This document shows positions 30,709 to 52,469 of a stretch of 64,000 bases of DNA, piece after piece (position 1 is the first letter of the stretch; every line of letters starts with the position of its first letter). Location of the stretch: positions 898,001-962,000 of the forward strand of contig NC_014652.1 in the NCBI RefSeq assembly GCF_000166355.1. The letters are read 5' to 3'. The DNA is from Caldicellulosiruptor hydrothermalis 108 (GTDB taxonomy: Bacteria > Bacillota > Thermoanaerobacteria > Caldicellulosiruptorales > Caldicellulosiruptoraceae). The notes under the pieces were generated by a model. It made no database searches and was not told the DNA's origin. It saw only the letters and a list, made by a program, of their open reading frames with translations. The translations under genes were made by a program, and so were the position numbers.

Positions 30709-30734
30709 AATTACATCAAAATAATAAACTTCAT

Positions 30735-30879: not shown

Positions 30880-30889
30880 GAGTTTTTGT

Positions 30890-31849
30890 ATGAATCTCAG
30901 AAGCTTAATTGCTATAACTCTTGGAATTTTTTTGATGTTTTTTTCTGCAAAGGCCTTTGCCCAGTCAGCCCAGGCAAAATCAACAATAAATATAAGAAGT
31001 GCACCTTCAACAAGTAGTAAGATTTTAGGAGTTTTCCCCAAAGGGTTTAAAACCCAAGTTTTGTCAAATGCAGGTGGATGGGTAAAGATTTCGTATGATG
31101 GAATTGTTGGGTATGTAAAGTCTGATTACATAACTATTACAAATGAAAAAAGGAGCGCAGTTTCAAATACTTCAAGGGCAAGTGTTGCAAAAACGGCTGC
31201 TAAAGCTGCGCAAGCTACAGTTTTAAAAGACAATGCGCGCTTAAGAAGTGATATGTCAACCTCATCAAAGATATTAAAGACATTAAAAAGTGGCAGCAAA
31301 GTCTATGTCCTGTCAAGAGAACAAAATGGCTGGGTGAAGGTAAAGACGCTTGATGGCACAGTAGGATATATGGCATATTACCTTTTGAAGATGCCTTCAC
31401 AATTTGTATCGAAAACAATGTCACGTGGTGGGTATGAGAGAGGTCAAGCAGAAACTTTTACAAATCTTAGCTTAGCTCAGAGAATTTTGGAGTTTGCTCA
31501 AAGATTTCGTGGTATAAGATACTCATATGGTGGGACGTCACCATCAACTGGTTTTGACTGTTCAGGATTTGTACAGTTTGTGTTTAAGAACTTTGGGATA
31601 CATTTAGAAAGAACAGCAGCTGACATGGCAAGAACAAATGGTGTGAGAATTTCTTACAGTGAAATTAAACCGGGAGATTTGCTTTTCTTTGACACAGATG
31701 GCGGGAAAAATTATATAAATCATGTTGGCATATATTTAGGCGGTGGCAAGTTCATTCATGCATCAAGTGCAAGGGGACGTGTAACAGAGACTGACTTAAA
31801 TTCATATTATGGAAGATTTTTTATGATGGCAAAAAGGGTCATAAGATGA
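30890..31849 (+). CDS. NlpC/P60 peptidoglycan endopeptidase with two SH3b domains
   Basis: Secreted wall hydrolase that cuts peptide stems of peptidoglycan. Signal peptide residues 1-24 (FSAKAFAQS cleavage region); two SH3b domains, each with the INIRSAPSTSSKILG / ARLRSDMSTSSKILK signature (about 30-85 and 110-165); then the catalytic domain from about residue 195 with FDCSGFVQFVF (nucleophile Cys), INHVGIYLGGGKFIHASS (His). The 319 residues are intact. Controlled by the c-di-AMP riboswitch directly upstream, as in other Firmicutes, tying wall turnover to c-di-AMP. Confidence 0.95.
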   Translation: MNLRSLIAITLGIFLMFFSAKAFAQSAQAKSTINIRSAPSTSSKILGVFPKGFKTQVLSNAGGWVKISYDGIVGYVKSDYITITNEKRSAVSNTSRASVAKTAAKAAQATVLKDNARLRSDMSTSSKILKTLKSGSKVYVLSREQNGWVKVKTLDGTVGYMAYYLLKMPSQFVSKTMSRGGYERGQAETFTNLSLAQRILEFAQRFRGIRYSYGGTSPSTGFDCSGFVQFVFKNFGIHLERTAADMARTNGVRISYSEIKPGDLLFFDTDGGKNYINHVGIYLGGGKFIHASSARGRVTETDLNSYYGRFFMMAKRVIR

Positions 31850-34381: not shown

Positions 34382-36064
34382 GTGGTAGCAGGCAAAAAAC
34401 GCTTAGGAGAGTTGTTGGTAGAAGCAGGATTGATCACTCAAGAGCAGCTTCAAAAGGCTTTAAGTCTCCAAAAGTCTACGGGAAAGAAATTGGGTGAAAT
34501 TTTAGTTGAACAAGGTTTTGTGACAGAAGATGAGATTGTAGAAGTTTTAGAATTTCAATTGGGAATTCCCCACATAAAACTTGATCAATACAATATTGAT
34601 CAGGAAGCAGTGAGTCTGGTTTCAGAAAACATTGCCAAAAGACATACGTTAATTCCCATAAAAGTTGAAGGTGATAAGATTTATGTTGCTATGGCAGATC
34701 CTCTTAATATATTTGCAATTGAGGATGTGGCAATATATAGCGGTAAGAATGTTCAGCCAGTTATAGCCAAGGCTGGTGATATCAAAAGAGCGATTGAAAG
34801 ATTTTATGGAAAACAGGAGGCATTAAGAGTTGCAGAGGAACTGAACAAAGAAGCATCTCAAAGGAAGCCACAACGATTAGTAATTTCTTCTGATGAGGAG
34901 CAGGAAACTCCTGTTGTAAAGCTTGTTAATTCCATATTTGAGCAGGCAATAACACTGCGGGCAAGTGACATACATATTGAGCCTTTTGAGAATGAAGTGA
35001 AAATAAGATTCAGAATTGATGGGGTATTGTATGATATTTTGAAGTTAGAGCCAAGTGTTTTATCGTCATTGATTGCACGAATAAAGGTTATTGGAAATAT
35101 GGATATAGCTGAAAAAAGAATTCCCCAAGATGGTAGAACAACATTTTACTTTGATAATAGACAATATGATATGCGAATTTCATCCTTACCCACCATTTAT
35201 GGAGAGAAACTTGTAATAAGAATAGCTGATAAGAGTTCATTTATTAAATCAAAACTTGAACTGGGATTTACAGATGATGATTTAGAAAAATATAATAGAA
35301 TCATTTCTTCCCCGCATGGTATCATTCTTGTTTGCGGCCCAACAGGTAGTGGTAAAACAACAACCTTGTATACAATTTTGAATGAATTGAATACTGGAAC
35401 AAAAAACATCATTACTGTTGAAGACCCTGTTGAAAGTACAATTTATGGCATAAATCAAGTTGAGATCAATCCCAAAGTAGGACTTACATTTGCCAGTGTG
35501 CTGAGGTCTATCTTGCGACAAGACCCCGATATAATTATGATTGGTGAGATAAGGGATAGAGAAACTGCAGAAATAGCAATTAGAGCAGCAATTACAGGAC
35601 ATCTTGTGTTGTCTACAATTCATACTAATGATGCTCCAAGTGCCATTACAAGACTAATCGATATGGGTATAGAGAATTTTTTAATTGGTTCTGCAGTAGT
35701 GGGTGTTATATCCCAGCGTCTTGTGAGAAAGATTTGTCCGAATTGTAAAACAGCATATATACCAGATATTTCTGAGTTAAACACTTTGGGTATAAAAGAT
35801 AATAAGGATACAAAACTTTACAAAGGCAGAGGATGTGCTTTTTGTAATCATAAGGGTTATTATGGAAGGACAGGAATATATGAAATTTTGCTGATGTCAA
35901 AAGAATTAAAAAAATATATAGCTAAAAACGCAAGCAGTGACGAAATTAGAGAGATAGCTATAAAAGAAGGGATGAAAACCTTAAAAGAAGCATGTATCGC
36001 AAAAGTGTTAGAAGGTGTAACAACGGTAGAGGAGTTTGTGAAAGCGACTTACACATTAGATTAA
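34382..36064 (+). CDS. pilB: Type IV pilus extension ATPase PilB with MshEN c-di-GMP-binding domain
   Basis: Hexameric ATPase that drives pilus assembly at the inner membrane. Residues 7-30 and 36-59 are two tandem MshEN motifs (R/K-L-G-x2-L-V-x2-G-x6-L-x3-L-x2-Q) separated by five residues, the known c-di-GMP-binding architecture. The GspE core has Walker A GPTGSGKTTTLYTIL near residue 320, Asp-box EDPVES, a conserved His in STIHTNDAPSA, and a zinc motif CPNC...CAFC near residue 455. 560 residues, complete. Start GTG 34382 follows AGAAGG. First gene of the pilus operon. Confidence 0.95.
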   Translation: MVAGKKRLGELLVEAGLITQEQLQKALSLQKSTGKKLGEILVEQGFVTEDEIVEVLEFQLGIPHIKLDQYNIDQEAVSLVSENIAKRHTLIPIKVEGDKIYVAMADPLNIFAIEDVAIYSGKNVQPVIAKAGDIKRAIERFYGKQEALRVAEELNKEASQRKPQRLVISSDEEQETPVVKLVNSIFEQAITLRASDIHIEPFENEVKIRFRIDGVLYDILKLEPSVLSSLIARIKVIGNMDIAEKRIPQDGRTTFYFDNRQYDMRISSLPTIYGEKLVIRIADKSSFIKSKLELGFTDDDLEKYNRIISSPHGIILVCGPTGSGKTTTLYTILNELNTGTKNIITVEDPVESTIYGINQVEINPKVGLTFASVLRSILRQDPDIIMIGEIRDRETAEIAIRAAITGHLVLSTIHTNDAPSAITRLIDMGIENFLIGSAVVGVISQRLVRKICPNCKTAYIPDISELNTLGIKDNKDTKLYKGRGCAFCNHKGYYGRTGIYEILLMSKELKKYIAKNASSDEIREIAIKEGMKTLKEACIAKVLEGVTTVEEFVKATYTLD

Positions 36065-36092
36065 AATTTTTGTCTTTTATAGGAGGCTTTTT

Positions 36093-37151
36093 ATGATGAA
36101 CATTGATGAGATTCTTAAAGAAGCTTTTTTAAAAGGTGCCTCAGATATTCACATAACGGTGGGATTGCCTCCAACTATTAGGGTTCATGGAAATTTGATT
36201 CGGCTTGGGGATGAGAAACTTTTGCCTAAGGATATAGAGTCAATTGTAAAATACATTGTGCCGGCTGATCATCTTGAAAAACTTTATGAGAATGGTGAAG
36301 TTGATTTTTCTTATAGCCTACAAGGAATTAGTAGATTCAGAGTAAATGTATTCAAGCAAAGGGGTTCATATGCAATTGCTTTTAGAATCATTCCTCAAGA
36401 AATTCCAAAATTTGAGAATTTGGGACTTCCACCTGTTATCAGAGAATTCACAAAGCTTAATAAGGGATTGGTTTTAGTTACTGGTCCAACTGGTTCAGGA
36501 AAATCAACTACACTTGCCTCGCTGATAGATATAATAAATACAGAAAGAAGTGTTCATATAATTACCCTTGAAGATCCAATCGAATACTTGCATAAACACA
36601 AAAGCAGTATAGTAAATCAAAGAGAAATCGGAAGCGATTCTAAAAGTTTTGCAGCAGCTCTTCGCGCTGCTTTACGTGAAGACCCGGATGTAATCTTAGT
36701 TGGTGAGATGAGAGATTTGGAAACAATCTCGATTGCTCTTACCGCTGCAGAGACCGGGCACTTAGTATTTTCAACTCTTCACACTATTGGTTCTGCAAAA
36801 ACAATCGATAGGATAATTGATGTTTTTCCACCACATCAGCAACAGCAAGTAAGAGTCCAACTGTCAACTGTACTCCAGGCAGTAGTTTCTCAACAATTGC
36901 TTACGCGTAGAGATAAACTTGGTAGAGTAGTTGCTTGTGAGGTAATGATTGCAACGCCGGCTATAAGAAATTTGATTAGAGAAAACAAAACTTACCAGAT
37001 TCAATCTGTGATTCAGACAAGTATGAAAAATGGAATGATAACGATGGAGCATTCGTTAGTAGAGTTGTATCGCAAAGGGTGTATCACAAAAGAAGATGTT
37101 TTTACATATGCGCCTGACCAAGACATAGTGAATAAATTACTCCAACTGTAA
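36093..37151 (+). CDS. pilT: Type IV pilus retraction ATPase PilT
   Basis: Depolymerises pili, powering twitching and DNA uptake. The 352 residues have the PilT N-terminal PAS-like fold (ASDIHITVGLPPTIRVHG), Walker A GPTGSGKSTTLASL, the Asp box LEDPIEYLH, Walker B VILVGEMRDLETIS, the His box STLHTIGSAKTIDRIID and the C-terminal retraction segment ending AGLITLE-like MKNGMITMEHSL. AGGAGG precedes the ATG. Direct neighbour of pilB, so this pilus can both extend and retract. Confidence 0.95.
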   Translation: MMNIDEILKEAFLKGASDIHITVGLPPTIRVHGNLIRLGDEKLLPKDIESIVKYIVPADHLEKLYENGEVDFSYSLQGISRFRVNVFKQRGSYAIAFRIIPQEIPKFENLGLPPVIREFTKLNKGLVLVTGPTGSGKSTTLASLIDIINTERSVHIITLEDPIEYLHKHKSSIVNQREIGSDSKSFAAALRAALREDPDVILVGEMRDLETISIALTAAETGHLVFSTLHTIGSAKTIDRIIDVFPPHQQQQVRVQLSTVLQAVVSQQLLTRRDKLGRVVACEVMIATPAIRNLIRENKTYQIQSVIQTSMKNGMITMEHSLVELYRKGCITKEDVFTYAPDQDIVNKLLQL

Positions 37152-37167
37152 GTGGGGAAGATATCAT

Positions 37168-38379
37168 ATGGGCGAGTTTGTTTACAAAATATTAGATAAA
37201 AACGGAAAATTAACTAAGGGAACAATTATGGCCGAAGATATAAATGCAGCTCTGAAAATTCTTAAAAGCAGAGAAGTTTTTGTTATTGACTTACAAGAAA
37301 AAGGTTTATTAGAAAAAGAAATTAATTTAAGAGTCAAAAAGAGAATAAGTACAAAAGAGCTCTTTATTTTCTGCAGACAATTTGCTACAATGTTGATGGC
37401 AGGAATATCAGTCTTGAATTGCCTCGATGTATTGAGAACACAGAATAGAGGCAAATATTTTGGCAAAGTTTTAAATGACTTGTATGAGGAGGTAAGTAAA
37501 GGAAATCCTCTTTCATCTGCTATGCATGAGCACCGCGATATTTTTCCGTCTATTCTGATACACATGGTTGAAGCTGGAGAGTTGAGTGGTTCATTGGATA
37601 CGGCAATGGATAAAATGGCAATACATTTTGAAAAAGAAATGAAATTGAAGCAGAAGATAGTAAATGCTTTGATATATCCAGTGATTGTCATAAGTGTTGC
37701 ATCACTTGTATTTTTGTTTTTACTTATTTTTGTAATACCAGCATTTGTCGAAATTTTTGCACAATTAAATGTGCAACTTCCATCGATAACTCTTTTTATA
37801 ATAAATTTAGGAGTTTTTTTAAAGAGAAACCTTATATATATATTAAGTGCAATTGTTCTTGGTTACATAGGATACAAAATGTTCAGAAAGTTTCAACGAG
37901 GAGCCGTTTTTATTGATAGTTTCAAACTCAAAATTCCCCTTATTAAAAGTATTATTTTAGGTCAAGCTACAAGCAGGTTTACAAGGACACTGGCAACACT
38001 TTTAGGTGCTGGTGTTAACTTGTTAACCGCTTTAGATACTACAAAAAGAGTAATTTCCAATGCTTATATTGAAAAGGCGTTCGAGGGGGTGATTGAGAGA
38101 GTTAGAGGGGGAGAGGGATTGTCACAACCAATAAGTGAGCTAAAAATATTTCCTCCACTTGTATCGGTTATGCTAAGAACCGGTGAAGAAACAGGTAGGC
38201 TCGAGTATATGCTCGAAAAAGCGGCTGACTTTTACGAAAATGAGGTTGAAAATCAGATAACAAGACTGACCGCTTTGTTTGAACCGTTGATGATTATCTT
38301 TCTTGCTTTGATGGTAGGTTTTTTAGTGATATCAATTATTTTGCCATTGTTTAGGTTGTATGGAAGTGTAACTATATGA
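37168..38379 (+). CDS. pilC: Type IV pilus inner-membrane platform protein PilC
   Basis: Membrane platform between the ATPases and the pilin pool. The 403 residues contain two GspF/T2SSF domains: the first around residues 65-190 (FCRQFATMLMAGISVLNCLD; MVEAGELSGSLDTAMDKMA) and the second around 270-395 (FTRTLATLLGAGVNLLTALD; MLRTGEETGRLEYMLEKAA), each followed by membrane helices. The internal repeat is plain in these two pairs of segments. The start ATG 37168 follows GTGGGGAAG. Confidence 0.95.
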   Translation: MGEFVYKILDKNGKLTKGTIMAEDINAALKILKSREVFVIDLQEKGLLEKEINLRVKKRISTKELFIFCRQFATMLMAGISVLNCLDVLRTQNRGKYFGKVLNDLYEEVSKGNPLSSAMHEHRDIFPSILIHMVEAGELSGSLDTAMDKMAIHFEKEMKLKQKIVNALIYPVIVISVASLVFLFLLIFVIPAFVEIFAQLNVQLPSITLFIINLGVFLKRNLIYILSAIVLGYIGYKMFRKFQRGAVFIDSFKLKIPLIKSIILGQATSRFTRTLATLLGAGVNLLTALDTTKRVISNAYIEKAFEGVIERVRGGEGLSQPISELKIFPPLVSVMLRTGEETGRLEYMLEKAADFYENEVENQITRLTALFEPLMIIFLALMVGFLVISIILPLFRLYGSVTI

Positions 38380-38411
38380 AGAGGTTTTAAAAAAAAGAGG
38401 AGGGAGATAAA

Positions 38412-38852
38412 ATGTTGAGATGGTTTATTAAAAAAATTAATGGGAAGAATGAAGGTTTTACATTAATTGAAATGATTGTAGTAGTTGCAATAATTGCAAT
38501 ACTTGTAGGAATAGCTGTTCCCCAGGCAGTAAAACAAATCAATAGAGCCAAAATTAGTGCTGACTTAGCAAATGCAAGGAATATAGCAATGGCTATTCAA
38601 CAATATGTAGCAGATGGTGGAGATGCCAGCAAGCTCTCTACTAACTGGAAATCAATAGAAGAAGATACATTTATAGTCCCATATCTAAGTGGGGGAGTAC
38701 CAAAACCAAAATATTCTTCGGACTATAAAGGCTTTTGTTACAAATACCAAAATGAAACTGTTCACGTTGGAGTATATAAAGATTCTTCATCTTTGACTGA
38801 CGATAAAGTAGATGAAATATATCCAAATCCAGAGCAACCTTATAACCAGTGA
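38412..38852 (+). CDS. pilA: Major type IV prepilin (PilA-like)
   Basis: Probable pilus subunit. The leader of about 14 residues is basic and ends NEG, then the cleavage/methylation motif G-FTLIEM followed by the hydrophobic helix IVVVAIIAILVGIAVPQAV. The soluble head is about 95 residues with no Cys pair. 146 residues. GAGGAGGG gives it the strongest ribosome-binding site in the operon, consistent with the major pilin; the stop overlaps pilD (GTGA). Confidence 0.9.
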   Translation: MLRWFIKKINGKNEGFTLIEMIVVVAIIAILVGIAVPQAVKQINRAKISADLANARNIAMAIQQYVADGGDASKLSTNWKSIEEDTFIVPYLSGGVPKPKYSSDYKGFCYKYQNETVHVGVYKDSSSLTDDKVDEIYPNPEQPYNQ

Positions 38853-39637
38853 AAAATAATAAGATGTGGTTAGACAATATGTGTCGCATAATGTTTTTAA
38901 TTTGGACCCTTGTCCTTGGCAGCTTCCTAAACGTTTGCATATATAGAATACCACGGGGGGAGTCGATTGTATATCCCCCCTCTCATTGTCCTAATTGTAA
39001 AACAAGAATAAAGCCATATGATTTAATCCCTGTTTTGAGTTTTATCATTTTAAAAGGTAGATGCAGGGCTTGTCATGAGAAGATTCCATTAAGGTATCCT
39101 ATAGTTGAAATTTTATCCTTGCTATGTGCAATTAGTGCCTACAGCAAGTTTGGTTTTAGTGTCAGGACATGGATAGCGTATTTCATAGGATTTGTATTGA
39201 TATATATCTCATTTGTGGATGTGGATACACTTGAGATATCTAATCTTTCCATATTAATACTTTTTGTACTTTCCTCATTGTTATACTTTTTAGACAAAGG
39301 TTTTTCTTTGATAAACATAAAACACTTAATTCTTGGCGGAATCTATTCAAGTTCCTTGGTTTTGTTGATATATCTATCCTCTCGAGGAAGAGCAATGGGG
39401 TTTGGTGATGTTTTACTATTGTTTGCAGGCGGAGTTGGTTTTGATTTTGGAAAGGCAGTTGTTGTTAATTTTTTGAGCTTTGTAATAGGGGCAATATATG
39501 GTGTTCTTTTATTACTTCTTAAAAGAAAAACAGTAAAAGCACAAATTCCGTTTGCTCCTTTTATAGCTATGTCTATATATTTAACTCTTATATTTGGTGA
39601 TCATATTGTGAAATGGTATCTTGGTTTATTTTTGTAA
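38849..39637 (+). CDS. pilD: Prepilin leader peptidase / N-methyltransferase PilD
   Basis: Cleaves the pilin leader at Gly and methylates the new N-terminus. The 262 residues carry LGSFLNVCIYRIP, the zinc ligands CPNC...CRAC in the first cytoplasmic loop (about residues 47-75), and the two catalytic aspartates in FVDVDTLEI and MGFGDVLLL. About eight membrane helices. Start is GTG 38849 overlapping the pilin stop; ATG 38864 is a possible alternative but has no better ribosome site. Confidence 0.93.
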   Translation: MKNNKMWLDNMCRIMFLIWTLVLGSFLNVCIYRIPRGESIVYPPSHCPNCKTRIKPYDLIPVLSFIILKGRCRACHEKIPLRYPIVEILSLLCAISAYSKFGFSVRTWIAYFIGFVLIYISFVDVDTLEISNLSILILFVLSSLLYFLDKGFSLINIKHLILGGIYSSSLVLLIYLSSRGRAMGFGDVLLLFAGGVGFDFGKAVVVNFLSFVIGAIYGVLLLLLKRKTVKAQIPFAPFIAMSIYLTLIFGDHIVKWYLGLFL

Positions 39638-39662
39638 AAATATGTTGAGAGGGGAGAAATTT

Positions 39663-39935
39663 GTGTATAAAGTAAAAAACTATATGGAAGAAGCTGTTTT
39701 AATGTTATTTGATAGAGTGTTGAAAGATATAGATGTGTGCAAATGTGAAAAATGCAAGACAGATATATTTGCCCTGACTTTAAACAGGCTTCCACCAAGA
39801 TATGTGGCAACAGAAGAGGGAGAGCTTTACACAAAAATAGAGTCCTTAAAGGAACAATTTGAAGTTGACATAATTGCAGCAATTACTGCTGCAGCATATA
39901 TTGTAAAAAATAATCCTAAACATGAGAAAAAATAA
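39663..39935 (+). CDS. comFB: ComFB family protein
   Basis: Small competence-associated protein. The 90 residues match the family: VKNYMEEAVLMLFDRV at the start, DVCKCEKCKTDIFALTLN with three Cys, LPPRYVATEEGELYTKI, and a terminal AAYIVKNNPKH. In cyanobacteria ComFB proteins have been described as cyclic-dinucleotide receptors that influence pili and competence. GAGGGGAGA is seven bases before GTG 39663, favouring it over ATG 39642 or earlier starts. It lies inside the pilus operon, between pilD and a minor prepilin. Confidence 0.85.
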   Translation: MYKVKNYMEEAVLMLFDRVLKDIDVCKCEKCKTDIFALTLNRLPPRYVATEEGELYTKIESLKEQFEVDIIAAITAAAYIVKNNPKHEKK

Positions 39936-40509
39936 AGAAGTAATGTGGTTTAACATGAAAGGTAATTGTAGAGCATTTACATTGATTGAAATGATAATTG
40001 TAATCTCAATTTTGGTCGTATTGTTGTCAATTGCAATTCCCAATTATTTGTTATTTAGTGAAAAAGCAGAGATTGATAGAGTTACTAAAGAAATTGCTTC
40101 TATGATAACACAAATGTATGGTAAAATAGAAAGTGAATTGGCATATTATAAGTATTTTGTTGTAATAAACAATTGGGCCAAAGAAAACGATAATGGAGAA
40201 AAATACCTTGAAGTTAAATTCATTAAAAGAGATGAAGGTAATCAAATAAAAATTCTTAAGACGTTGGTAAGTCGGAAAGTAGTACTCGAAAGTAACAAAG
40301 TTTCGACTCAGAGATTAACTGTTATTACGTATGATAATAGGCTTCGATATTGCATTTCTGAGGCAGATAGTGAGACTACAATTTTCTTAAGCTCTTATTC
40401 TCCTACGCAGGGAGATACGGTGATTGAAATAAAAGGGAAAGGGCATTCTACATTCAAAAGAAAGATTATTATTAAAGAAATACCTCCAGGAAGTGTCTTG
40501 ATAGAATGA
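39922..40509 (+). CDS. Type IV prepilin-like protein, Ala at -1
   Basis: Minor pilin candidate. A 16-22-residue leader (depending on the start) ends NCRA, and the motif AFTLIEM precedes a hydrophobic helix (IIVISILVVLLSIAIPNYLL). The residue before the cleavage site is Ala instead of the usual Gly. The head domain is strand-rich (YLEVKFIKRDEGNQIKILK). ATG 39922 overlaps comFB by 14 bases; ATG 39943 or 39955 may be the true start, as no strong ribosome site distinguishes them. Confidence 0.8.
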   Translation: MRKNKEVMWFNMKGNCRAFTLIEMIIVISILVVLLSIAIPNYLLFSEKAEIDRVTKEIASMITQMYGKIESELAYYKYFVVINNWAKENDNGEKYLEVKFIKRDEGNQIKILKTLVSRKVVLESNKVSTQRLTVITYDNRLRYCISEADSETTIFLSSYSPTQGDTVIEIKGKGHSTFKRKIIIKEIPPGSVLIE

Positions 40510-41012
40510 AGAAAAGAGCCTTGGGCTTTACATTAATAGAGGTTTTAGTCAGTGTTACAATTTTGTTTATTGTGATAGTGGTTATATATGATTTTTTTAT
40601 GAACACAAATAAATTTCTACATAACCAAGATGAGAATATAGAAGTATCTCTTCAAGCTAAAAGACTCCAAGAAGATATAAAACAATGGTTCCAGATGGCT
40701 GATCAAAAGTCTATCGAATGTTTTCCGTACAGCAAAAGAGTTGAGATGAATGTTTATGAATATGACTTAGCTCAGAATATTTTCTTAAAATATAGAATTG
40801 TACTCCAATATGATGGTGTTCAAAAGAAAATAAGTATTCATAAATATGATGAAGCTGGCAGAGAGGTTTCTTCTTCAATTTATTTAGAGAAAAAGGTAGA
40901 GTATTTTTCTGTTATTGAAAATGGTAATTTAGTTTTGATTACTTATGAAATTAAATTTAGTCCTAAAAAAGTGCAGAAATACGAGATTACTTATTATCGA
41001 CGTACTGATTAG
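40506..41012 (+). CDS. Type IV prepilin-like protein (PulJ-like minor pilin)
   Basis: Short leader MKKRALG followed by FTLIEVLVSVTILFIVIVVIYDFF, the classic prepilin helix with Glu at +5. The head of about 135 residues is mostly strands and helices without Cys. 168 residues, in the size range of GspJ/PilW-like minor pilins that sit at the pilus tip. It overlaps the preceding gene by four bases (ATGA). Confidence 0.85.
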   Translation: MKKRALGFTLIEVLVSVTILFIVIVVIYDFFMNTNKFLHNQDENIEVSLQAKRLQEDIKQWFQMADQKSIECFPYSKRVEMNVYEYDLAQNIFLKYRIVLQYDGVQKKISIHKYDEAGREVSSSIYLEKKVEYFSVIENGNLVLITYEIKFSPKKVQKYEITYYRRTD

Positions 41013-41044
41013 AAATTAGAGTATCAAAGTGAGGCAATATAAAC

Positions 41045-42019
41045 ATGAGCAAAAAAATTACCATTGAGATAGGAAAAAACTATATAAAAATTTTAGAAGG
41101 AACTGTTAATAAGAAAATTTTAATTAGTAAAGTCTTTGAAATCGAATCGGATGATGATTTTATTAGGGATGATTCAAGGGTGGAAGAAGATATTCTTTAC
41201 AAGTTGTTAGGAGAAGGGATTGTAAACAATAATTTTTCTAAAAACAACGTTACAATAGTGCTTTCTGGAATTGCAAACATTCTAATAAGAGAAATGGTAA
41301 TTCCTGCTCTTTCACCAGATAAGACCTATTCACTTTTGAAATTTGAGGCAAAGCAAAGTTTTCCTGTAAATGTAGAGAATTTCGTAGTTGATTATAAACA
41401 GCTTTCTTTTTTTAAGGAAGGAAAAACAAAAAAGCAACATATTTTAATGGTGGCAGTTCCCAAGAAAATTATAGAGGGGATTATAAATGTGTCTGAAAGA
41501 TTACACTTGAGAGTGAAAAAGATTGATTTAGAGTCAAATGCGTTATGGCGGGTAGTGAGTAGGGAAAGAGGAACTTTGAAAGAAGAAACAGCTACTGAGA
41601 ATACCTTTATGATTGTGAATTTGATGCGGTACTATGTAACTGTTGTAATTTGTAAGGGAGAAAAGCTGCTGTTAGCAAAGACGTTTCCATTTTATCAGCT
41701 TGAAAGGATTTTCAGGTCTGAGGATATGTCAGAAGAAGTACTCTTCACTTATTACGGTTATATGCTTAGTGAGGTAGTAGAAAATGTTGCAAAGTTCTAT
41801 GAATTTTTTAAAATAAGAAGACACGCAAATGAGACACTTTCTAATATTTATTTAACAGGTGAGTTGTGCAAAAAAATGGATATGAGGGAACTAATGAAAG
41901 CAAGAATTAACAGCAATGCAATATACTTGGAAAATCTAAATGTTATAGACACAGCAAATAGCTTAGAAGAATTAAATCAGTGTTCGATTGTAACAGCTAT
42001 TGGTGGGTTATTGACATGA
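41045..42019 (+). CDS. pilM: Pilus assembly protein PilM
   Basis: Cytoplasmic actin-like protein that links the ATPase side to PilN. The 324 residues have an FtsA/PilM-like pattern: ITIEIGKNYIKILEG (phosphate-1-like loop, unusually without the normal D), LIREMVIPALSPDKTYSLLKFEAKQ, a region near 110-120 with HILMVAVPKKIIEGII, and a late IYLTGELCKKM. The nucleotide-binding Asp/Gly pattern is weaker than in proteobacterial PilM. It is followed by pilN and pilO, the expected partners. Confidence 0.88.
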   Translation: MSKKITIEIGKNYIKILEGTVNKKILISKVFEIESDDDFIRDDSRVEEDILYKLLGEGIVNNNFSKNNVTIVLSGIANILIREMVIPALSPDKTYSLLKFEAKQSFPVNVENFVVDYKQLSFFKEGKTKKQHILMVAVPKKIIEGIINVSERLHLRVKKIDLESNALWRVVSRERGTLKEETATENTFMIVNLMRYYVTVVICKGEKLLLAKTFPFYQLERIFRSEDMSEEVLFTYYGYMLSEVVENVAKFYEFFKIRRHANETLSNIYLTGELCKKMDMRELMKARINSNAIYLENLNVIDTANSLEELNQCSIVTAIGGLLT

Positions 42020-42570
42020 AGGAGAGGAAGTTTTTGAAAAAAAGAAGTTATAAAGATATAAATTTACTGCGGGCATATCAGTACGAAACACGAAAAAGAG
42101 AAAAAATGCTGAGGATATTTGTTGCCATTTTAATATTAGAAGTTGTATTATTTTGTATCATCTCTTTTGGATACATCACAAAAATTAAGATTATAAAGAA
42201 TGAAATAAAGACATTAGAACTCTTAAAAAGCGAAAAACAAAAGGATACGCTGGTAATAAAAAATGCAGCGGCAGAAGTGAAATTGTTAAAATTAAAAGAA
42301 AAGTTTGTAAATTTAAAATTAGAAGAGCATAAAAATGTATTAAAAATCTTAAATGAGTTAGAAAAAATTACGCCGCAAGATGTAGTATTTGACAGTTTGA
42401 GTTTCTCTAAAGGAGAAATTAATTGTGTTGTTAGAAGCAATTCAGTAGAGTCACTTTTTAAATTTGTTGTGGGTATTAGAACCAGTAGCGTATTTACTAA
42501 TGTTTCATTTTCAAATATAAGAAGCGAAGGTGATTGGAAACTCATCTCAGTAAAAGCAAAAATACAATAA
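42016..42570 (+). CDS. pilN: Pilus assembly protein PilN
   Basis: Single-pass membrane protein of the alignment complex. The N-terminus has KDINLLRAYQYETRKREK (the INLL motif that binds PilM), then one membrane helix (IFVAILILEVVLFCIISFGY), then a coiled coil and a small ferredoxin-like domain. 184 residues from ATG 42016, which overlaps the pilM stop as ATGA; the longer frame from TTG 41980 would lie inside pilM and lacks a site. Confidence 0.9.
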   Translation: MKERKFLKKRSYKDINLLRAYQYETRKREKMLRIFVAILILEVVLFCIISFGYITKIKIIKNEIKTLELLKSEKQKDTLVIKNAAAEVKLLKLKEKFVNLKLEEHKNVLKILNELEKITPQDVVFDSLSFSKGEINCVVRSNSVESLFKFVVGIRTSSVFTNVSFSNIRSEGDWKLISVKAKIQ

Positions 42571-42584
42571 GGAAGGGGTTATTA

Positions 42585-43196
42585 GTGGGATTAAAAGATA
42601 GAGATAAGAAACTTTTATTAATCTTGGTTATGATAATTTTGGCTTTCACTTATTATAACTTTTATGTAAGAAAATATAGTCAGGAAATTTACACTTTAAA
42701 AATCAGAAAACAACAACTTGAAGATGAATTGAATATTCTAAGCTCACAGTTAATTGTCTATAAAAAAGAAGAGAACACAAAATTAAATCTAAGTAGTGAA
42801 GAATTGAACAAAAGACTTCCCCCTAACCAAGATCAGATGTTTACTCTTTTAGATCTCCAAAGATTAGCACAACAATTTAATGTGGAAATCTCCGATTATT
42901 CTATTTCTCAAAAACAAAAGTTGAACAATTCCTTTGGTAATGAATTTGATGATATTTTTTATTTTTCTTCTCATCAAACATGGAGAATGAAATATGAGGA
43001 TTTTAAGAAGCTTTTTGAAATGCAGAAGTTTTTTTATCCTCTTTACTCTATAGATTCTTTCACATTGATAAATTCTGAAGATAAAATAGTGGCAGATTTT
43101 GAAATTAAGTTTTATGGTTACGAAGACAGATTTGCGAAAAAGAGAGAACTTTCATTTCCAAATATAGTTACGGGGAAAAATAATATTTTTAAATAG
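42585..43196 (+). CDS. pilO: Pilus assembly protein PilO
   Basis: Partner of PilN. A short basic cytoplasmic start (GLKDRDKK), one membrane helix (LLLILVMIILAFTYYNF), a coiled coil (QEIYTLKIRKQQLEDELNIL in part) and a C-terminal domain of about 120 residues. 203 residues from GTG 42585, with GGAAGGGG six bases upstream; the frame continues back to 42534 without a site. Sequence conservation in PilO is low; placed here mainly by topology and position after pilN. Confidence 0.85.
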   Translation: MGLKDRDKKLLLILVMIILAFTYYNFYVRKYSQEIYTLKIRKQQLEDELNILSSQLIVYKKEENTKLNLSSEELNKRLPPNQDQMFTLLDLQRLAQQFNVEISDYSISQKQKLNNSFGNEFDDIFYFSSHQTWRMKYEDFKKLFEMQKFFYPLYSIDSFTLINSEDKIVADFEIKFYGYEDRFAKKRELSFPNIVTGKNNIFK

Positions 43197-43232
43197 ACAG
43201 GGTTAGGAGTTTTTGTAAAGGAGAAGTACAAA

Positions 43233-43640
43233 ATGAAACAAAGTGGTTTTACACTTATAGAAGTAATAGTTGTAGTGGCTATAATTTATATTTTGTTAAT
43301 TCCGATAGGAAACTTGTTGCAGCAAATACTAAATGCTAACATAAAAACAGAGAAAAACTTTGAATTAGCAAAAGTTTTGAATAAAACGATTGAAGAAGTA
43401 GTGCATTTCTTGAAAGATATAAATCCATCATTTGTTGGTCAAAATTCTGTTAATGTAAAAGATAATAACGGAAATGTGGTGTACAGGATAATATATGAAG
43501 TTTCAAACTATGATAATTTTGAAGTGACACAAGATGTTTATAATTACCGAGAAGAACTTAAAAAAGTTGATTTAGAAATATTAGATAAAAACAATAATAA
43601 TATCAAGTCACTTACATATTTTATTAGGGTGAATCAATGA
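43233..43640 (+). CDS. Type IV prepilin-like protein
   Basis: Leader MKQSG then FTLIEVIVVVAIIYILLIPIGNLLQQIL, a standard prepilin N-terminus with Glu at +5. The head of about 100 residues has the strand segment NNGNVVYRIIYEVSNY. 135 residues, probably a minor pilin of GspI/PilV size. The start ATG 43233 follows AAAGGAG. Overlaps the following large protein by four bases. Confidence 0.85.
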   Translation: MKQSGFTLIEVIVVVAIIYILLIPIGNLLQQILNANIKTEKNFELAKVLNKTIEEVVHFLKDINPSFVGQNSVNVKDNNGNVVYRIIYEVSNYDNFEVTQDVYNYREELKKVDLEILDKNNNNIKSLTYFIRVNQ

Positions 43641-45553
43641 TGAAAAACTTTATAAGAAGCTCCAGCAAAGGGTCAGCATTAATAATTGTGATAGTTTTTT
43701 TTACTGTATTGCTTCTTCTTGTTGCAGGCACGATGGAACTTGCCCTCACCTCGTTAATACATAGTAAAGAGACAATAAACAAGACACAAACTTCAACTGC
43801 TGCAGATAGTGCGATGGAATATATTCTGTTTTATATTAGCAAAGCGATTGCTCAAGCAAAAAGGCTTACATATGCTCAGTTTTTTGATTCAACTGGAAGG
43901 TTGATTTACACGGGTGATAGTTTTGAAAATGATTATTTAAATACTTTCAATAGCTATATAGCTGATTTTTTTGAAAACAGAGGTAACAGAATTGGAATTG
44001 ATATGAAACTCGCAGATAATAGTTCAGTTCAAGTTTCAAATGTATCTGAACTTATTTTGCTGGCAAGACAAAGTTGTGAATATATTAGCAATATATCTTT
44101 TTCCAGATCAGGAAATTCATATATTTTAGAAGTTGAAGCTTTAGATTCTACTACGAAAACAAAGAGGGTAGAAAGATGTGTATTTACAATTCCTTCCCCA
44201 TTTGAAAAAGTCGAGATTGTTTCTAATTCTTCATCCCCAGACACTTTATTACCCTATTTGTTAGCGTGGGATAGCAATATATTTGATTTTACCACTTATG
44301 GCCTTTTTAGCAGTGACAAAATCATATTTAACAATAACATAACGGTTACCACACGAAATATGTACAGCAGTAGCGATATAACACTTCGAAGTGACAACAA
44401 TAGACCAGGAGATTATACTATTAAGGCTGATAACATTATTGTGAAAAATGGAAGTTTTATCTTTGGAGGAAACAATAAGGTAGTAGTTAACAATTTGATG
44501 TACACAAAAAATGGGATAACTTTTAATGGAAACAACAATAGACTTGAATCAAACTCTCTTCTTTTCTCGGATGGGACTATCTCTCTTAGTGGAAAAGATG
44601 AAATAGTAGCAAATGCATTGTTTTGTGATACATTGGATATTAGAAATGGGAGCAGCAATTTAGTCACTATAAATGAATTTGCATATTTTAATAAATTAAA
44701 TATCTGGACTGACAAAATGGTCTTGAAATCAAATTCTAAGCTTTTTGGAGGAGATATAGAAATAAGAAATGATGGTATTCTGTCTGCAGATGTCGGAACA
44801 GTTGTATATGCTAACAATCTGGATATTATTGGTTCATCTGCAACTATTGATGCTCCTGATACTGTGCTCTATTGTAATAACTTAAAAATAGATGGAGAAG
44901 TAAAGCTAAACGTAAAGAAAATTGTTTGTAGTGGAACGATTACTATTTCTAATTTAAATTCAGGAACGAATATAAGAGTTTCAGATAAAATTGAGTGCAG
45001 AAGTATTCCCCAAAATATACCCTCAGGTATTCGGAATTTGTTTGTTCAAAATCCAAATGTAAATTTTCAAATTCCTTATCCCACTATTCCCGCGATTATA
45101 GAGGAAATAAAGAAGAATACATTTCCAACTAATTGGATTAGACTTGATAACATTGTGGAAGACAAAAAAGATATTAACGGAGCAAATTATTATTCACTTG
45201 TGTCTACAGGACAGAATAGTAATGACATAAATGAAATATTTAACAAGAATAAACCTAACAATCCACATTCTAATGTTCAGATTTTCGTTATTACAAAAAG
45301 TGGAATCAATGTACCACCAGATCAAAACCATTTGGATGGAGTTTTAATAGCAAATGGGTCTCTTCAGTTCAATGGAGGTAACTTAAATATCGAGTATGTT
45401 AGAATGCCTCAACCACTTATAGACTATTTATTGAGCAAGAACATAATAAAAATAGAAAATGTTCAGCCACCTGTAATTAGTAATCCTACAGTTACTTTTT
45501 TGCCTCGAGATGTGAATTTGTTTATCATTGCACGTCATTTTGTAGTTAAATAA
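43637..45553 (+). CDS. Large PilX-like pilus-associated protein with beta-helix-like repeats
   Basis: Last gene of the operon. The N-terminus (SSSKGSALIIVIVFFTVLLLLVAGTMELAL) is the PilX-type G-x-A-L-I transmembrane helix, without the FTLIE prepilin motif. Residues about 200-470 repeat short strand units (ITVTTRNMYSSSDITLRSD; IIVKNGSFIFGGNNKVVVNN; MYTKNGITFNGNNNRLESN) that suggest a right-handed beta-helix or bactofilin-like fold. The end (about 470-638) looks globular. 638 residues is far longer than PilX (about 180). It may be a tip adhesin. I do not know a named family. Confidence 0.75.
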   Translation: MMKNFIRSSSKGSALIIVIVFFTVLLLLVAGTMELALTSLIHSKETINKTQTSTAADSAMEYILFYISKAIAQAKRLTYAQFFDSTGRLIYTGDSFENDYLNTFNSYIADFFENRGNRIGIDMKLADNSSVQVSNVSELILLARQSCEYISNISFSRSGNSYILEVEALDSTTKTKRVERCVFTIPSPFEKVEIVSNSSSPDTLLPYLLAWDSNIFDFTTYGLFSSDKIIFNNNITVTTRNMYSSSDITLRSDNNRPGDYTIKADNIIVKNGSFIFGGNNKVVVNNLMYTKNGITFNGNNNRLESNSLLFSDGTISLSGKDEIVANALFCDTLDIRNGSSNLVTINEFAYFNKLNIWTDKMVLKSNSKLFGGDIEIRNDGILSADVGTVVYANNLDIIGSSATIDAPDTVLYCNNLKIDGEVKLNVKKIVCSGTITISNLNSGTNIRVSDKIECRSIPQNIPSGIRNLFVQNPNVNFQIPYPTIPAIIEEIKKNTFPTNWIRLDNIVEDKKDINGANYYSLVSTGQNSNDINEIFNKNKPNNPHSNVQIFVITKSGINVPPDQNHLDGVLIANGSLQFNGGNLNIEYVRMPQPLIDYLLSKNIIKIENVQPPVISNPTVTFLPRDVNLFIIARHFVVK

Positions 45554-45585
45554 GATATTAATGTTAATAGAGGAGTCAAAAACCA

Positions 45586-45614
45586 TTGCAATTTGTGTTG
45601 GAATTAAGTATTAT
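45586..45614 (+). promoter_or_regulatory. Promoter ahead of the GEMM riboswitch
   Basis: TTGCAA (45586-45591), 17 bases, TATTAT (45609-45614). A transcript from here would begin about 45 bases before the riboswitch. Confidence 0.45.
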
Positions 45615-45664
45615 AATAAAAGAGAATTTTCTAAACAAAGTAAAATGGTAAATTAGAAAATAAA

Positions 45665-45769
45665 GACATATGTCGACAAAGGCAAACCTGTCGAAAGGCA
45701 GGGGCGCAAAGCCATGGGCCTGTCGGAAGTACAGCTTCCTATGGTCGCCAGGCTGCCGAAACATATGTC
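45665..45769 (+). ncRNA. Cyclic-di-GMP riboswitch (GEMM-I type) without a downstream gene
   Basis: Family landmarks in order: P1 GACATATGT (45665-45673) with ACATATGTC (45761-45769); conserved GGCAAACC (45681-45688); P2 CCTGTC-GAAA-GGCAGG (45687-45702) with the GAAA tetraloop; GCGCAAAGCC (45704-45713); and in P3 the GGTCGCCAGGCTGCCG end. This class binds c-di-GMP. By-eye alignment puts G at the ligand-discriminating position, favouring c-di-GMP over cGAMP. Terminator hairpins follow, and the next plus-strand gene is 2.5 kb away. Confidence 0.93.
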
Positions 45770-45825: not shown

Positions 45826-45837
45826 CTTTGACTGTAG

Positions 45838-45870
45838 GCACCTGGCGAGAAGTCAGGTGCTTTAATTGTT
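45838..45870 (+). terminator. Second terminator behind the riboswitch
   Basis: GCACCTG (45838-45844) pairs with CAGGTGC (45854-45860), followed by TTTAATTGTTTT. Confidence 0.65.
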
Positions 45871-45970
45871 TTGTAACAAGCTTTTTGATAAATGAAGAAA
45901 GGTCTGCGGGGAATAGAAAATAGAAAATCCCTCTATCCTCATAACCCCTCGAACTCCTAAAATACATTTT
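45871..45970. other. Unassigned stretch between riboswitch terminators
   Basis: No gene, promoter or hairpin that I can support. A 22-codon frame from ATG 45892 has no ribosome-binding site and is probably chance. Confidence 0.5.
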
Positions 45971-46003
45971 GAGCCGACCATCCTTTTGGTCGGCTCTTTT
46001 TTT
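45971..46003 (+). terminator. Third, strong plus-strand terminator
   Basis: A perfect stem GAGCCGACCA (45971-45980) with TGGTCGGCTC (45987-45996) is followed by seven T. Its T run overlaps the end of the minus-strand glycosylase gene. The same hairpin on the minus strand lacks a T run. Confidence 0.9.
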
Positions 46004-46568
46004 ATGGTTTTGTCGCTATCTTCTCCAGCCTTTCCTTCACACTTTTCAAATCCCTGTAAAAATCCTCTCTTTTGCCCGGGTCTCTTAAAAGTGCTGCTGG
46101 ATGGTATGTAGCCATAATCAAAAAATTACCTTTTTCAAACCACTTTCCCCTGTCTTGAGTGATTTTAAGGTCTTTGCCAAGAATATATTTCATAGCTGTT
46201 GCACCAAGACAGACAATTATTTTTGGAGAGATGAGTTTTATCTGGGCTCTCAAAAAAGGCAAGCAGTTTTGAGCCTCTACCTCTGTTGGCACGCGGTTGT
46301 TTGGGGGTCTACACTTTAAAATGTTGCAGATATAAAAATCTTTTTCTCTTGAAAGCTCCAGAGAAGTCAAAGCCAAGTCCAAAAACTTTCCTGCTCTTCC
46401 TACAAACGGTTTCCCTTGCTTGTCTTCTTCCTCGCCCGGTGCTTCGCCTACAAATACAAGCTTTGCGTTTTTGTTCCCATCACCCACCACAACGTTTGTG
46501 CGATTTTTGGAAATAGGGCATTTTTCACATGAAAGACACGCATTTTCAAGCTCTTCCCATGTCAGCAT
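46002..46568 (-). CDS. udg: Family 4 uracil-DNA glycosylase
   Basis: Removes uracil from DNA, an enzyme common in thermophiles where cytosine deaminates fast. The 188 residues have iron-sulfur ligands at the N-terminus (CLSCEKCP) and later Cys residues, the active-site motif [21 protein letters not shown] in its first half, [10 protein letters not shown] with [13 protein letters not shown], and the late [11 protein letters not shown]. Complete. It overlaps the end of argD by 23 bases and shares its transcript. Confidence 0.93.
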
Positions 46569-50409: not shown

Positions 50410-51420
50410 ATGCTTGTGCTTGGGATCGAGACATCATGCGATGAAACTTCTGCTGCAATTGTAGAAGATGGAAGAAAAGTTCTGTCAAATGTGATATACT
50501 CTCAGATTGACATCCATCATCAATTTGGTGGTGTTGTGCCAGAGATAGCTTCTCGCAAGCATGTTGAAAAGATTTCATACGTTGTTGATATGGCGTTCAA
50601 ACAGGCAGGTTTGACCATACACGATATTGATGGTATTGCTGCAACGTATGGGCCTGGGCTTGTAGGTTCGCTTCTTGTGGGGCTTTCGTTTGCAAAGGCA
50701 CTAAGCTATGCCAAAAGGCTTCCGTTTGTTGCTGTGAATCACATTGAAGGGCATATTTATGCCAATTTTATAACATACCCTCAACTTACACCTCCATTGA
50801 TTGTTCTTGTGGTCTCTGGAGGGCATACTAATCTAATTATTTTAAAAGATTTTGAAGAGTATGAAGTGGTTGGAAAAACAAGAGATGATGCGGCAGGCGA
50901 GGCTTTTGATAAGATTGCAAGGTACTTGGGGCTTGGATATCCTGGCGGTCCGGCCATAGACAAAATCGCAAAGCAGGGTGATGAGGACAAATACAAATAT
51001 CCTGTTGCTGATGTTGATGGGTACAATTTTAGTTTCAGCGGATTGAAATCTGCCGTGATAAACCATGTTCATGGGCTTTGGCAGAAAAGCGAAGAATTTA
51101 AAATAGAAGATGTTGCTGCGTCCTTCCAAAAAACAGTGGTGAGCATACTTGTAGAAAAAACAATCAATCTTTCACTTGAGACAAATATAAGAAAAATAGC
51201 AGTTGCCGGTGGCGTTGCTGCAAACTCAAGACTAAGAAGCGAATTTTATAAAAAGTGTGCTGAGCACAATATTGAATTTTTTGTGCCGGAATTTAAGTAC
51301 TGTACAGACAATGCAGCTATGATTGCCTCATGCGGCTACTTTAAACTGCAAAAAGGAATAGTGTCGTCTTATCGCGAAAATGCTGTTCCTTATATAAGTC
51401 TTGTAAGCAAAAAAAGTTAA
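50410..51420 (+). CDS. tsaD: tRNA N6-adenosine threonylcarbamoyltransferase TsaD
   Basis: Final enzyme of t6A modification at position 37 of ANN-reading tRNAs. The 336 residues have LGIETSCDETSAAIV, the metal-binding His pair in NHIEGHIYANF, the ATP-grip segment LVVSGGHTNLI, DDAAGEAFDKIARYLGLGYPGG and a late VAGGVAANSRLR and CTDNAAMIA. The start ATG follows AAGGAG. The end overlaps the convergent HD-GYP gene by four bases. Confidence 0.97.
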   Translation: MLVLGIETSCDETSAAIVEDGRKVLSNVIYSQIDIHHQFGGVVPEIASRKHVEKISYVVDMAFKQAGLTIHDIDGIAATYGPGLVGSLLVGLSFAKALSYAKRLPFVAVNHIEGHIYANFITYPQLTPPLIVLVVSGGHTNLIILKDFEEYEVVGKTRDDAAGEAFDKIARYLGLGYPGGPAIDKIAKQGDEDKYKYPVADVDGYNFSFSGLKSAVINHVHGLWQKSEEFKIEDVAASFQKTVVSILVEKTINLSLETNIRKIAVAGGVAANSRLRSEFYKKCAEHNIEFFVPEFKYCTDNAAMIASCGYFKLQKGIVSSYRENAVPYISLVSKKS

Positions 51421-52469
51421 TAGTTAATTACATCAATAATTTCCCTTTTAGGATCTTGAGAGAGGTCCACAAAATAAGGAATGAGCACAGGTGGACCTTC
51501 TTTTCTTGCAACAACTTTCACGATTGGTTTTGTCTTGTTGAAAGGATTTTCTTCGTACACAATTGCGATCTCACCCGTATTTAGTACAACAAAGCAACCC
51601 ACTGGATATTTTACCACCATCTTTAAAAACTTTTGAACAATGTCCTTGTCAAAATGAATGCCCGCATACTTTGTAAGATAATCTGCCGCCTTTGTTGGCA
51701 CTATTTTCTTTTTGTACACTCTGTCTGCAGTAATGGCATCGTACACATCCGCAATTGCCACAATTCTTGCAAACAAGGGTATTTTATCGCCTTTGAGTTT
51801 GAGAGGATAACCAGACCCATCAAGTCTTTCATGGTGCAAAAGTGCCACTTCTGCAATCTGTTCAGAAACACCATCCATGTTTTTTACAATTTGATATCCA
51901 TATATTGTGTGTTTTTTCATCTCTTCAAACTCTTCATCAGTAAGCTTTGCAGGTTTATTTAATATCTCATGGGGAATTTTCATTTTGCCAAAATCGTGCA
52001 AAAGTGCTGCCAAAGCCAAATCTTCTATTTGTTTTCTATCAAGTTCTAAAAGCTTTCCAATTATGGCGGCAAAAATACTAACATCTACAGAGTGAAAGTA
52101 TGTATAGTTGTCAACATCTCTAAATCCAACTATTCTCAAGAACACATCCTCTTCTTCAATTATTTGCGCTACAATGTCGTTTACTATTTCTTTGGCAACA
52201 AATGGGTCAACAATTTCTCCTGCCTTTGCAGACAGCATCAGGTCCTGAATGGCAACAAAAGTCTCATGATATATGATCTCTTCTTTTACATAATTTTCGA
52301 CATTTTCATCTTCCACATAGACGCTGTCGATGTTGTGTTCTCTAAGCTTTTGAATAAATGAAGGTTTTATGATAAACCCTTCTGGAAGCAAAAGCTTGCC
52401 GTTTTCAGTAAACACATCTCGCGCAAGTTTCATACCCTCTTCAAGCTGATCAATTGTCACTTTTTTCAT
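51417..52469 (-). CDS. HD-GYP domain cyclic-di-GMP phosphodiesterase
   Basis: Degrades c-di-GMP, lowering its level. The 350 residues have an N-terminal partial domain (about 1-120; PEGFIIKPSFIQKLREHNID), then the HD-GYP domain (about 125-290) with LLHDFGKMKIP (HD), HTIYGYQIV, HHERLDGSGYP (GYP) and IADVYDAITADRVYKKK. Both metal-binding and GYP residues are intact, so it is probably active. It is the only c-di-GMP enzyme in the window and lies 6 kb from the pilus operon and its riboswitch. Confidence 0.92.
   Translation of the reverse strand: MKKVTIDQLEEGMKLARDVFTENGKLLLPEGFIIKPSFIQKLREHNIDSVYVEDENVENYVKEEIIYHETFVAIQDLMLSAKAGEIVDPFVAKEIVNDIVAQIIEEEDVFLRIVGFRDVDNYTYFHSVDVSIFAAIIGKLLELDRKQIEDLALAALLHDFGKMKIPHEILNKPAKLTDEEFEEMKKHTIYGYQIVKNMDGVSEQIAEVALLHHERLDGSGYPLKLKGDKIPLFARIVAIADVYDAITADRVYKKKIVPTKAADYLTKYAGIHFDKDIVQKFLKMVVKYPVGCFVVLNTGEIAIVYEENPFNKTKPIVKVVARKEGPPVLIPYFVDLSQDPKREIIDVINY

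What the first reader, a model, noticed from the sequence alone, without database searches (positions are those of the whole stretch)
34382..45769. Pilus operon surrounded by cyclic-dinucleotide sensors
Independent elements converge: a full MshEN double motif in PilB (residues 7-30 and 36-59, five-residue spacer), ComFB inside the operon (family reported to bind cyclic dinucleotides in cyanobacteria), a GEMM-I riboswitch at the end, and an HD-GYP phosphodiesterase 6 kb away. Two different cyclic dinucleotides may therefore act on one pilus and competence machine.
Basis: partly seen in the sequence, partly recalled or inferred. Interest (0 to 1): 0.7.

Follow-up and report, generated by a model that had tools for sequence, protein, structure and literature searches.

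The report
c-di-GMP riboswitch gating a noncoding RNA
In heat-loving, cellulose-eating bacteria, the riboswitch noticed after the pilus genes does not appear to control those genes; it looks like a switch, turned off by the signal c-di-GMP, that makes a small RNA carrying an ultra-conserved C-rich stretch, and copies of the same switch sit beside the cellulose-adhesin and main cellulase genes in related species.

Summary
The claim of two cyclic dinucleotides acting on one pilus machine is untested. The riboswitch has no pilus gene downstream of it; the operon ends in a tapirin (cellulose adhesin).

The riboswitch starts its own unit: aptamer, antiterminator/terminator, invariant C-rich element, second terminator. 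In 11 congeners this unit also carries a small secreted protein; here that gene is deleted while riboswitch, terminator and element are kept. All 19 copies of the C-rich core in 12 genomes lie 129-574 nt downstream of such a riboswitch, same strand; 7 are upstream of the cellulase gene celA. Six further riboswitches sit between two tapirin genes.

Folding predicts an OFF switch. The likely ligand is c-di-GMP. Best explanation: a c-di-GMP-gated noncoding RNA, arranged like EutX/Rli55. RNA-level action is probable; targets (pilC, celA ribosome-binding site) are only leads. I found no report of these riboswitches in the open literature searched.

The parts
34382..36064 (+). pilB, type IV pilus assembly ATPase; MshEN c-di-GMP motif in residues 7-59 (about nt 34400-34558)
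   Evidence: Pfam T2SSE and MshEN; motif match
36093..37151 (+). pilT
   Evidence: Pfam T2SSE E 2.7e-50
37168..38379 (+). pilC; about 38075-38125 is the strongest predicted pairing site of the C-rich element in the window (lead only)
   Evidence: Pfam T2SSF; duplex scans
38412..39637 (+). pilin 38412-38852 and prepilin peptidase pilD 38849-39637
   Evidence: N_methyl and Peptidase_A24
39663..39935 (+). comFB (start codon assigned by eye)
   Evidence: PF10719 E 1.9e-22
39922..43640 (+). minor pilins, pilM, pilN, pilO-like gene, further pilin
   Evidence: Pfam N_methyl, PilM_2, PilN; pilO-like by position only
43637..45553 (+). tapirin, cellulose adhesin, last gene of the operon
   Evidence: phmmer to PDB 6n2c over residues 37-638, 1319 bits
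45586..45614 (+). possible own promoter of the riboswitch unit (TTGCAA, 17, TATTAT); weak
   Evidence: consensus scan, 9 of 12
45665..45769 (+). c-di-GMP-I riboswitch aptamer (core 45672-45761) with extended P1 (45665-45672 with 45762-45769); 45746-45757 is the segment shared with the antiterminator
   Evidence: Rfam
45836..45862 (+). terminator T1; its 5' arm is also the antiterminator partner of the aptamer
   Evidence: terminator scan; folding
45922..45962 (+). conserved C-rich RNA element, identical to that of 11 relatives except in the former stop codon of the lost gene
   Evidence: blastn 40/41; alignment; genus-wide pattern
45971..45996 (+). terminator T2
   Evidence: terminator scan, 10 pairs then seven T
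51417..52469 (-). HD-GYP phosphodiesterase candidate; no sign that it belongs to the unit beyond proximity
   Evidence: HD_5 E 9.9e-40; motifs

Best explanation
The GEMM-I at 45672 is the sensor of a separate transcription unit: a c-di-GMP-controlled noncoding RNA, not a regulator of the pilus operon in cis. Without c-di-GMP, the 3' part of the aptamer pairs with the 5' arm of terminator T1 (antiterminator), so transcription continues into a conserved C-rich element and stops at T2. With c-di-GMP the aptamer holds that segment, T1 forms and the RNA is cut short (OFF switch). In congeners the same transcript also encodes a small secreted protein; here that gene has been deleted and only the RNA parts remain. 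A second copy, upstream of celA in seven genomes, has the same layout with no protein gene between the terminators. The C-rich element most probably acts as RNA, by pairing with G-rich mRNA stretches. Shown by sequence: anatomy, conservation, linkage, deletion. Predicted by folding: OFF logic. Inferred: transcription, ligand, RNA-level action, targets.
For: Aptamer 80.8 bits to c-di-GMP-I. In all 26 leaders with T1, transcripts truncated after the T1 5' arm fold into the antiterminator (mean pairing probability 0.99-1.00), and in the window the two states lie within 2 kcal/mol. The longest invariant run in the 11-species alignment, aptamer included, is the 37-nt element. Its core occurs 19 times in 12 genomes, 0 in the reversed control, always 129-574 nt downstream of such a riboswitch and on the same strand. 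The element outlives its coding gene twice: deleted in the window and frameshifted in G008. Every GGDEF domain read has the diguanylate-cyclase Asp.
Against: No transcript has been seen. The own promoter in the window is weak, and no terminator was found between tapirin and riboswitch, so the RNA may be the 3' end of the operon transcript. Full-length folding favours T1 in most leaders, so the switch needs co-transcriptional folding. The element is only half unpaired in the predicted window RNA. The celA pairing is not conserved in three of six genomes, and the pilC pairing is not seen in six of eleven.
Confidence: 0.6

Rival explanations
1. Orphan relic: the riboswitch lost its target gene by deletion in this lineage and is now without function.
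For: The small secreted gene is gone, and so are the GGDEF, MBL, GAF and SLH genes next to it in relatives. The genome's other GEMM-I copy scores low and lacks the downstream gene found in G009 and G010.
Against: Aptamer, P1, antiterminator, T1 and the C-rich element are all intact; the one change in the 41-nt stretch is in the former stop codon. The loss may be recent, however: at about 6% divergence a neutral 33-nt stretch would stay unchanged in roughly one case in eight.
Confidence: 0.2
2. Regulated 3' end of the pilus-tapirin transcript: read-through from tapirin enters the riboswitch, and c-di-GMP decides where the operon mRNA ends, changing its stability.
For: No terminator was found between the tapirin stop (45553) and T1.
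Against: In relatives the orthologous riboswitch lies behind a gene on the opposite strand, so it cannot be an operon 3' end there; it would be specific to this genome.
Confidence: 0.12
3. The riboswitch senses 3',3'-cGAMP instead of c-di-GMP.
For: Some GEMM-I relatives in Geobacter do (PMC6456294).
Against: Every GGDEF domain read has Asp, not the Ser/Thr of cGAMP-making enzymes. The base before P2 is G and the base after it is A, as in canonical c-di-GMP-I (position numbering from memory). c-di-GMP itself has been measured in the genus.
Confidence: 0.06
4. Antisense-acting riboswitch: its transcript runs into the convergent uracil-DNA glycosylase gene (46002-46568 -).
For: Such riboswitches have been catalogued elsewhere (PMC9943018); the glycosylase is the next gene and converges.
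Against: Terminator T2 (45971-45996) stops + strand transcripts before it; in relatives the gene is more than 4 kb away.
Confidence: 0.04
5. The C-rich element is a DNA site, for example for a transcription factor, and not an RNA element.
For: The published regulon study infers unknown factors for the glucan degradation locus (PMC8579813).
Against: All 19 copies have the same strand orientation relative to a riboswitch, and in the window class the element lies between converging genes, behind a stop codon.
Confidence: 0.1

Closest known systems
EutX (Enterococcus faecalis) and Rli55 (Listeria monocytogenes), riboswitch-controlled sRNAs (PMC7602753)
   Same: A riboswitch terminates transcription when ligand is bound and so prevents synthesis of a downstream noncoding RNA.
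   Different: Ligand there is vitamin B12 and the RNA sequesters a protein (EutV); here the ligand is c-di-GMP by homology and the output is a short C-rich element with no ANTAR-type hairpins described. In most relatives the unit also encodes a protein.
merRNA of Bdellovibrio (PMC3627812)
   Same: A noncoding RNA containing a c-di-GMP riboswitch and no conserved reading frame.
   Different: merRNA is proposed as a c-di-GMP reservoir; no terminator switch with a conserved downstream element was reported in the passages read.
c-di-GMP-I riboswitch, Rfam RF01051 and variant RF03167
   Same: Full aptamer, all positions matched.
   Different: Genomic setting: tapirin, celA and a noncoding element. 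I found no report of it for this genus.
MshEN-PilB and ComFB as cyclic-dinucleotide receptors (PMC5013675, PMC12313861)
   Same: Sequence motif and domain family are present.
   Different: Binding not tested in this genus; a key glycine of the MshEN motif is lysine in the other pilus clade.

Membership tests
c-di-GMP-I (GEMM-I) riboswitch | Covariance-model match over the whole aptamer above the curated threshold | tested here: met
   RF01051 80.8 bits (threshold 35), positions 1-87; RF03167 74.2 bits (threshold 59), 1-80
c-di-GMP-I (GEMM-I) riboswitch | Binds c-di-GMP | not testable with these tools
   Inferred from aptamer class and canonical GGDEF enzymes
GEMM-Ib cGAMP riboswitch | A Hypr GGDEF (Ser/Thr in place of Asp) in the genome to make the ligand | tested here: not met
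   In this genome 6 of 8 GGDEF domains could be read and all have Asp; the two others did not fit the search pattern and were not read. All relatives' domains that were read have Asp too, one GGDEF of G008 having Asn
Riboswitch-controlled sRNA (EutX/Rli55 arrangement) | Riboswitch with ligand-dependent terminator followed by a noncoding RNA and its own terminator | tested here: inconclusive
   Anatomy present: aptamer, T1, element, T2, no gene between; folding supports the switch. Transcript and ligand response not tested
Riboswitch-controlled sRNA (EutX/Rli55 arrangement) | Trans-acting function of the RNA | tested here: inconclusive
   Candidate pairing with pilC and with the celA ribosome-binding site in part of the genomes only
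MshEN c-di-GMP receptor | Two 24-residue motifs with a five-residue spacer | tested here: met
   First repeat strict, second relaxed, residues 7-59
ComFB | Pfam ComFB domain | tested here: met
   PF10719 79.5 bits, cut-off 25
ComFB | Binds c-di-AMP and c-di-GMP | not testable with these tools
   Known for a cyanobacterial member
HD-GYP phosphodiesterase | HD domain with HHExxDGxGYP signature | tested here: met
   HDFGK and HHERLDGSGYP

The most novel reading that the evidence does not exclude
A genus-wide family of c-di-GMP-switched base-pairing RNAs that, together with a cis riboswitch on a tapirin gene, lets c-di-GMP coordinate pili, cellulose attachment and translation of CelA in Caldicellulosiruptor: a c-di-GMP riboswitch whose output is a trans-acting regulatory RNA.
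Probability: 0.3. Interest if true: 0.82.

Novelty: new variant of a known kind. Interest (0 to 1): 0.62.

Why it matters
Control of the glucan degradation locus is an open question: the published regulon study of C. bescii says it lacks a dedicated transcription factor and infers unknown ones, and its text does not mention riboswitches or cyclic dinucleotides (PMC8579813). Intracellular c-di-GMP has been measured in this genus and tied to biofilm formation (PMC4342205, PMC9933333), but I found no effector described. Riboswitches beside tapirin-2 and celA give that signal concrete, testable outputs in organisms used for biomass conversion. A riboswitch whose output is an RNA element more conserved than the aptamer itself would be a rare architecture, and the genus offers natural losses of the coding gene to test it.

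Tried and rejected
Antisense control of the uracil-DNA glycosylase: T2 intervenes. cGAMP ligand: canonical GGDEFs, G before P2. I first read the A/G difference in J1/2 as position 20; by the model's structure line it is one base upstream, so it is not evidence for cGAMP. Pairing of the element with the pilO start site: 363 of 20,000 element shuffles do as well, in a best-of-66 search. Pairing with the start site of its own secreted-protein gene: no better than shuffles. Near-perfect seed sites elsewhere in three genomes: no consistent set of gene starts. RNA-level constraint on the 13-nt remnant within the coding gene: not significant (p 0.34). Small peptide antisense to the element: reading frame length not conserved between species (read by eye). 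Rfam at permissive thresholds: nothing at its gathering score besides the riboswitch. Structure of the secreted protein: mean pLDDT 59, not searched further. A first, larger shuffle run timed out and was repeated smaller. The whole genome was not available as a file, so no genome-wide target prediction was made.

Full report
Origin. The window lies in a closed 2.77 Mb genome. Its tapirin matches PDB 6n2c over residues 37-638 with 1319 bits, and relatives carry a CelA-type GH9-CBM3-GH48 enzyme. This is therefore a Caldicellulosiruptor; C. hydrothermalis is my inference from memory of that PDB entry. The compared genomes bear handles only (G001-G011).

Observation. PilB meets the published MshEN motif: the first repeat strictly, the second in its relaxed form. 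ComFB is in the pilus locus of ten of eleven relatives; no pilus locus was found in the stretches taken from G007.

What the riboswitch belongs to. No protein gene follows it on its strand. In all 11 relatives an orthologous riboswitch with the same P1 and the same T1 sits just upstream of a 139-158 aa secreted protein (broken in G008, shortened in G007), followed on the other strand by a GAF-GGDEF protein, an MBL-fold protein and a GAF protein (gene order varies slightly), then an SLH protein, then uracil-DNA glycosylase (in G006 the last part is rearranged). In the window the riboswitch is followed at once by the glycosylase. The small protein was not found anywhere in the genome, but 41 nt that lie at and behind its stop codon in the relatives survive at 40/41 identity, followed by a terminator. 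The single difference is in the former stop codon.

The C-rich element. In the 11-species alignment the longest invariant run is not in the aptamer but in this element (37 nt, agataatccctctatcctcataacccctcgaactcct). A related element, gctatcccctaaccccctc, lies behind the riboswitch upstream of celA, again between two terminators and with no protein gene; celA appears to have its own promoter-like sequence further down. The shared core CTATCCYC(N)TAACCCC occurs 19 times in 12 genomes, never in the reversed-pattern control, and every time 129-574 nt downstream of one of these riboswitches on the same strand. The one other genome of the order that is held lacks it. In G008 the small protein gene is frameshifted and the element is still intact.

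Genus-wide picture. Thirty GEMM-I copies were found in 12 genomes. Twelve are of the window's type. Seven are upstream of celA. Six lie between two tapirin genes, about 205-285 nt upstream of the second (in G008 that second gene is interrupted, and in G009 a transposase-like gene stands in between the first tapirin and the riboswitch); the second protein was confirmed as a tapirin by PDB 6n2b and 4wa0 in one genome. The rest precede an HD-GYP gene or a secreted protein, or are decayed. For the tapirin class the riboswitch looks like a plain cis regulator. For the celA class it more likely controls the intervening RNA than celA directly.

Mechanism. The aptamer's 3' segment GCCAGGCTGCC is complementary to the T1 5' arm in all 26 leaders that have T1. 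Transcripts ended at that arm fold into the antiterminator with probability 0.99-1.00, and the duplex beats at least 99% of shuffles. Between classes the T1 arm changes A to G and C to U, both keeping a pair with the fixed aptamer, while the other T1 arm changes to match; in the celA class TGGC is kept though it lies in the T1 loop (read by eye). The window leader is bistable, -79.4 against -77.7 kcal/mol. Ligand binding should therefore favour T1, that is OFF. This is prediction, and for most leaders it needs co-transcriptional folding because T1 wins at equilibrium. Computed energies are mostly for 37 C; the antiterminator preference weakens but keeps its sign at 70 C.

Ligand. RF01051 scores higher than RF03167 in bits (80.8 against 74.2). 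The base after P2 is A in all copies, as in canonical c-di-GMP-I, and the base before P2 is G (the meaning of these positions is from memory). GGDEF domains that could be read, six of eight in this genome and many in relatives, have the Asp of diguanylate cyclases and none has the Ser/Thr of cGAMP-making enzymes (rule from PMC6456294). c-di-GMP has been measured in three species of the genus.

Targets. Within the window the best site for the element, apart from itself, is inside pilC mRNA at about 38075-38125 (-42.7 kcal/mol). None of 60 shuffled elements reaches this anywhere in the window, although the site is sticky in general and is the best site for 38 of those 60. At the orthologous site the pairing beats shuffles in G001, G003 and G010 (0, 0 and 6 of 1500; 7 of 1500 for the window itself) and, within the gene, in G005 (0 of 60), but not in the six genomes with the other pilus type. 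pilB and pilT controls show almost no signal. The celA-class element is an exact 11-nt complement of the celA ribosome-binding site in three genomes and one base off or worse in three. I treat both as leads.

Relation to what is known. It works like EutX and Rli55 (riboswitch termination switches a noncoding RNA), with another ligand and another kind of output. merRNA is the nearest c-di-GMP example but is proposed as a reservoir. I found no paper in the open library that reports these riboswitches; subscription papers are not covered.

Verdict. The unusual thing is the riboswitch-gated RNA element. Anatomy and conservation are firm, the OFF logic is a good prediction, RNA-level action is probable, and targets are open.

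Noticed in passing
window 30726-30885 +: c-di-AMP (ydaO/yuaA) riboswitch, 88 bits, directly upstream of an SH3-NlpC/P60 hydrolase (30890-31849): an ordinary setting for this class, 3.5 kb before pilB.
   Followed up: partly
L050 4905, L051 5002, L052 5201, L054 5386, L055 4714, L056 5453: GEMM-I riboswitch between two tapirin genes, with terminator and predicted antiterminator, just upstream of the second tapirin: probable cis control of a cellulose adhesin by c-di-GMP. L050 is oriented +, L052, L054 and L056 are given in reverse-complement coordinates.
   Followed up: partly
G000:C1:2712179-2712271 (L049): The genome's only other GEMM-I copy scores low and lacks the downstream secreted-protein gene that follows its counterpart in G009 and G010.
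   Followed up: partly
window 34382-36064 and relatives L125-L135: Two types of pilus operon in the genus: in six genomes the first MshEN repeat of PilB has lysine instead of the conserved glycine (EAKIIT), so c-di-GMP binding may be lost there.
   Followed up: partly
L046 5104 (reverse-complement coordinates): In G011 an extra riboswitch precedes a 555-aa HD-GYP gene followed by two genes that look like CheA and CheW by eye.
   Followed up: no
L047 5507, L048 4954 (reverse-complement coordinates): Riboswitch before a 327-aa secreted protein, with an inverted repeat that could mask the ribosome-binding site: translational type rather than terminator type.
   Followed up: no
L035-L045, from -3.6 kb to the riboswitch: A protein of about 1150 aa (zinc-ribbon-like start, cyclase-like and ATPase-like parts by eye) is encoded divergently just upstream of the riboswitch in all relatives (split frames in G004 and G008), but is absent from that position in the window.
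   Followed up: no
L040, about 1.0-1.9 kb after the riboswitch: The GAF-GGDEF gene next to the riboswitch unit is interrupted by stops in G002.
   Followed up: no
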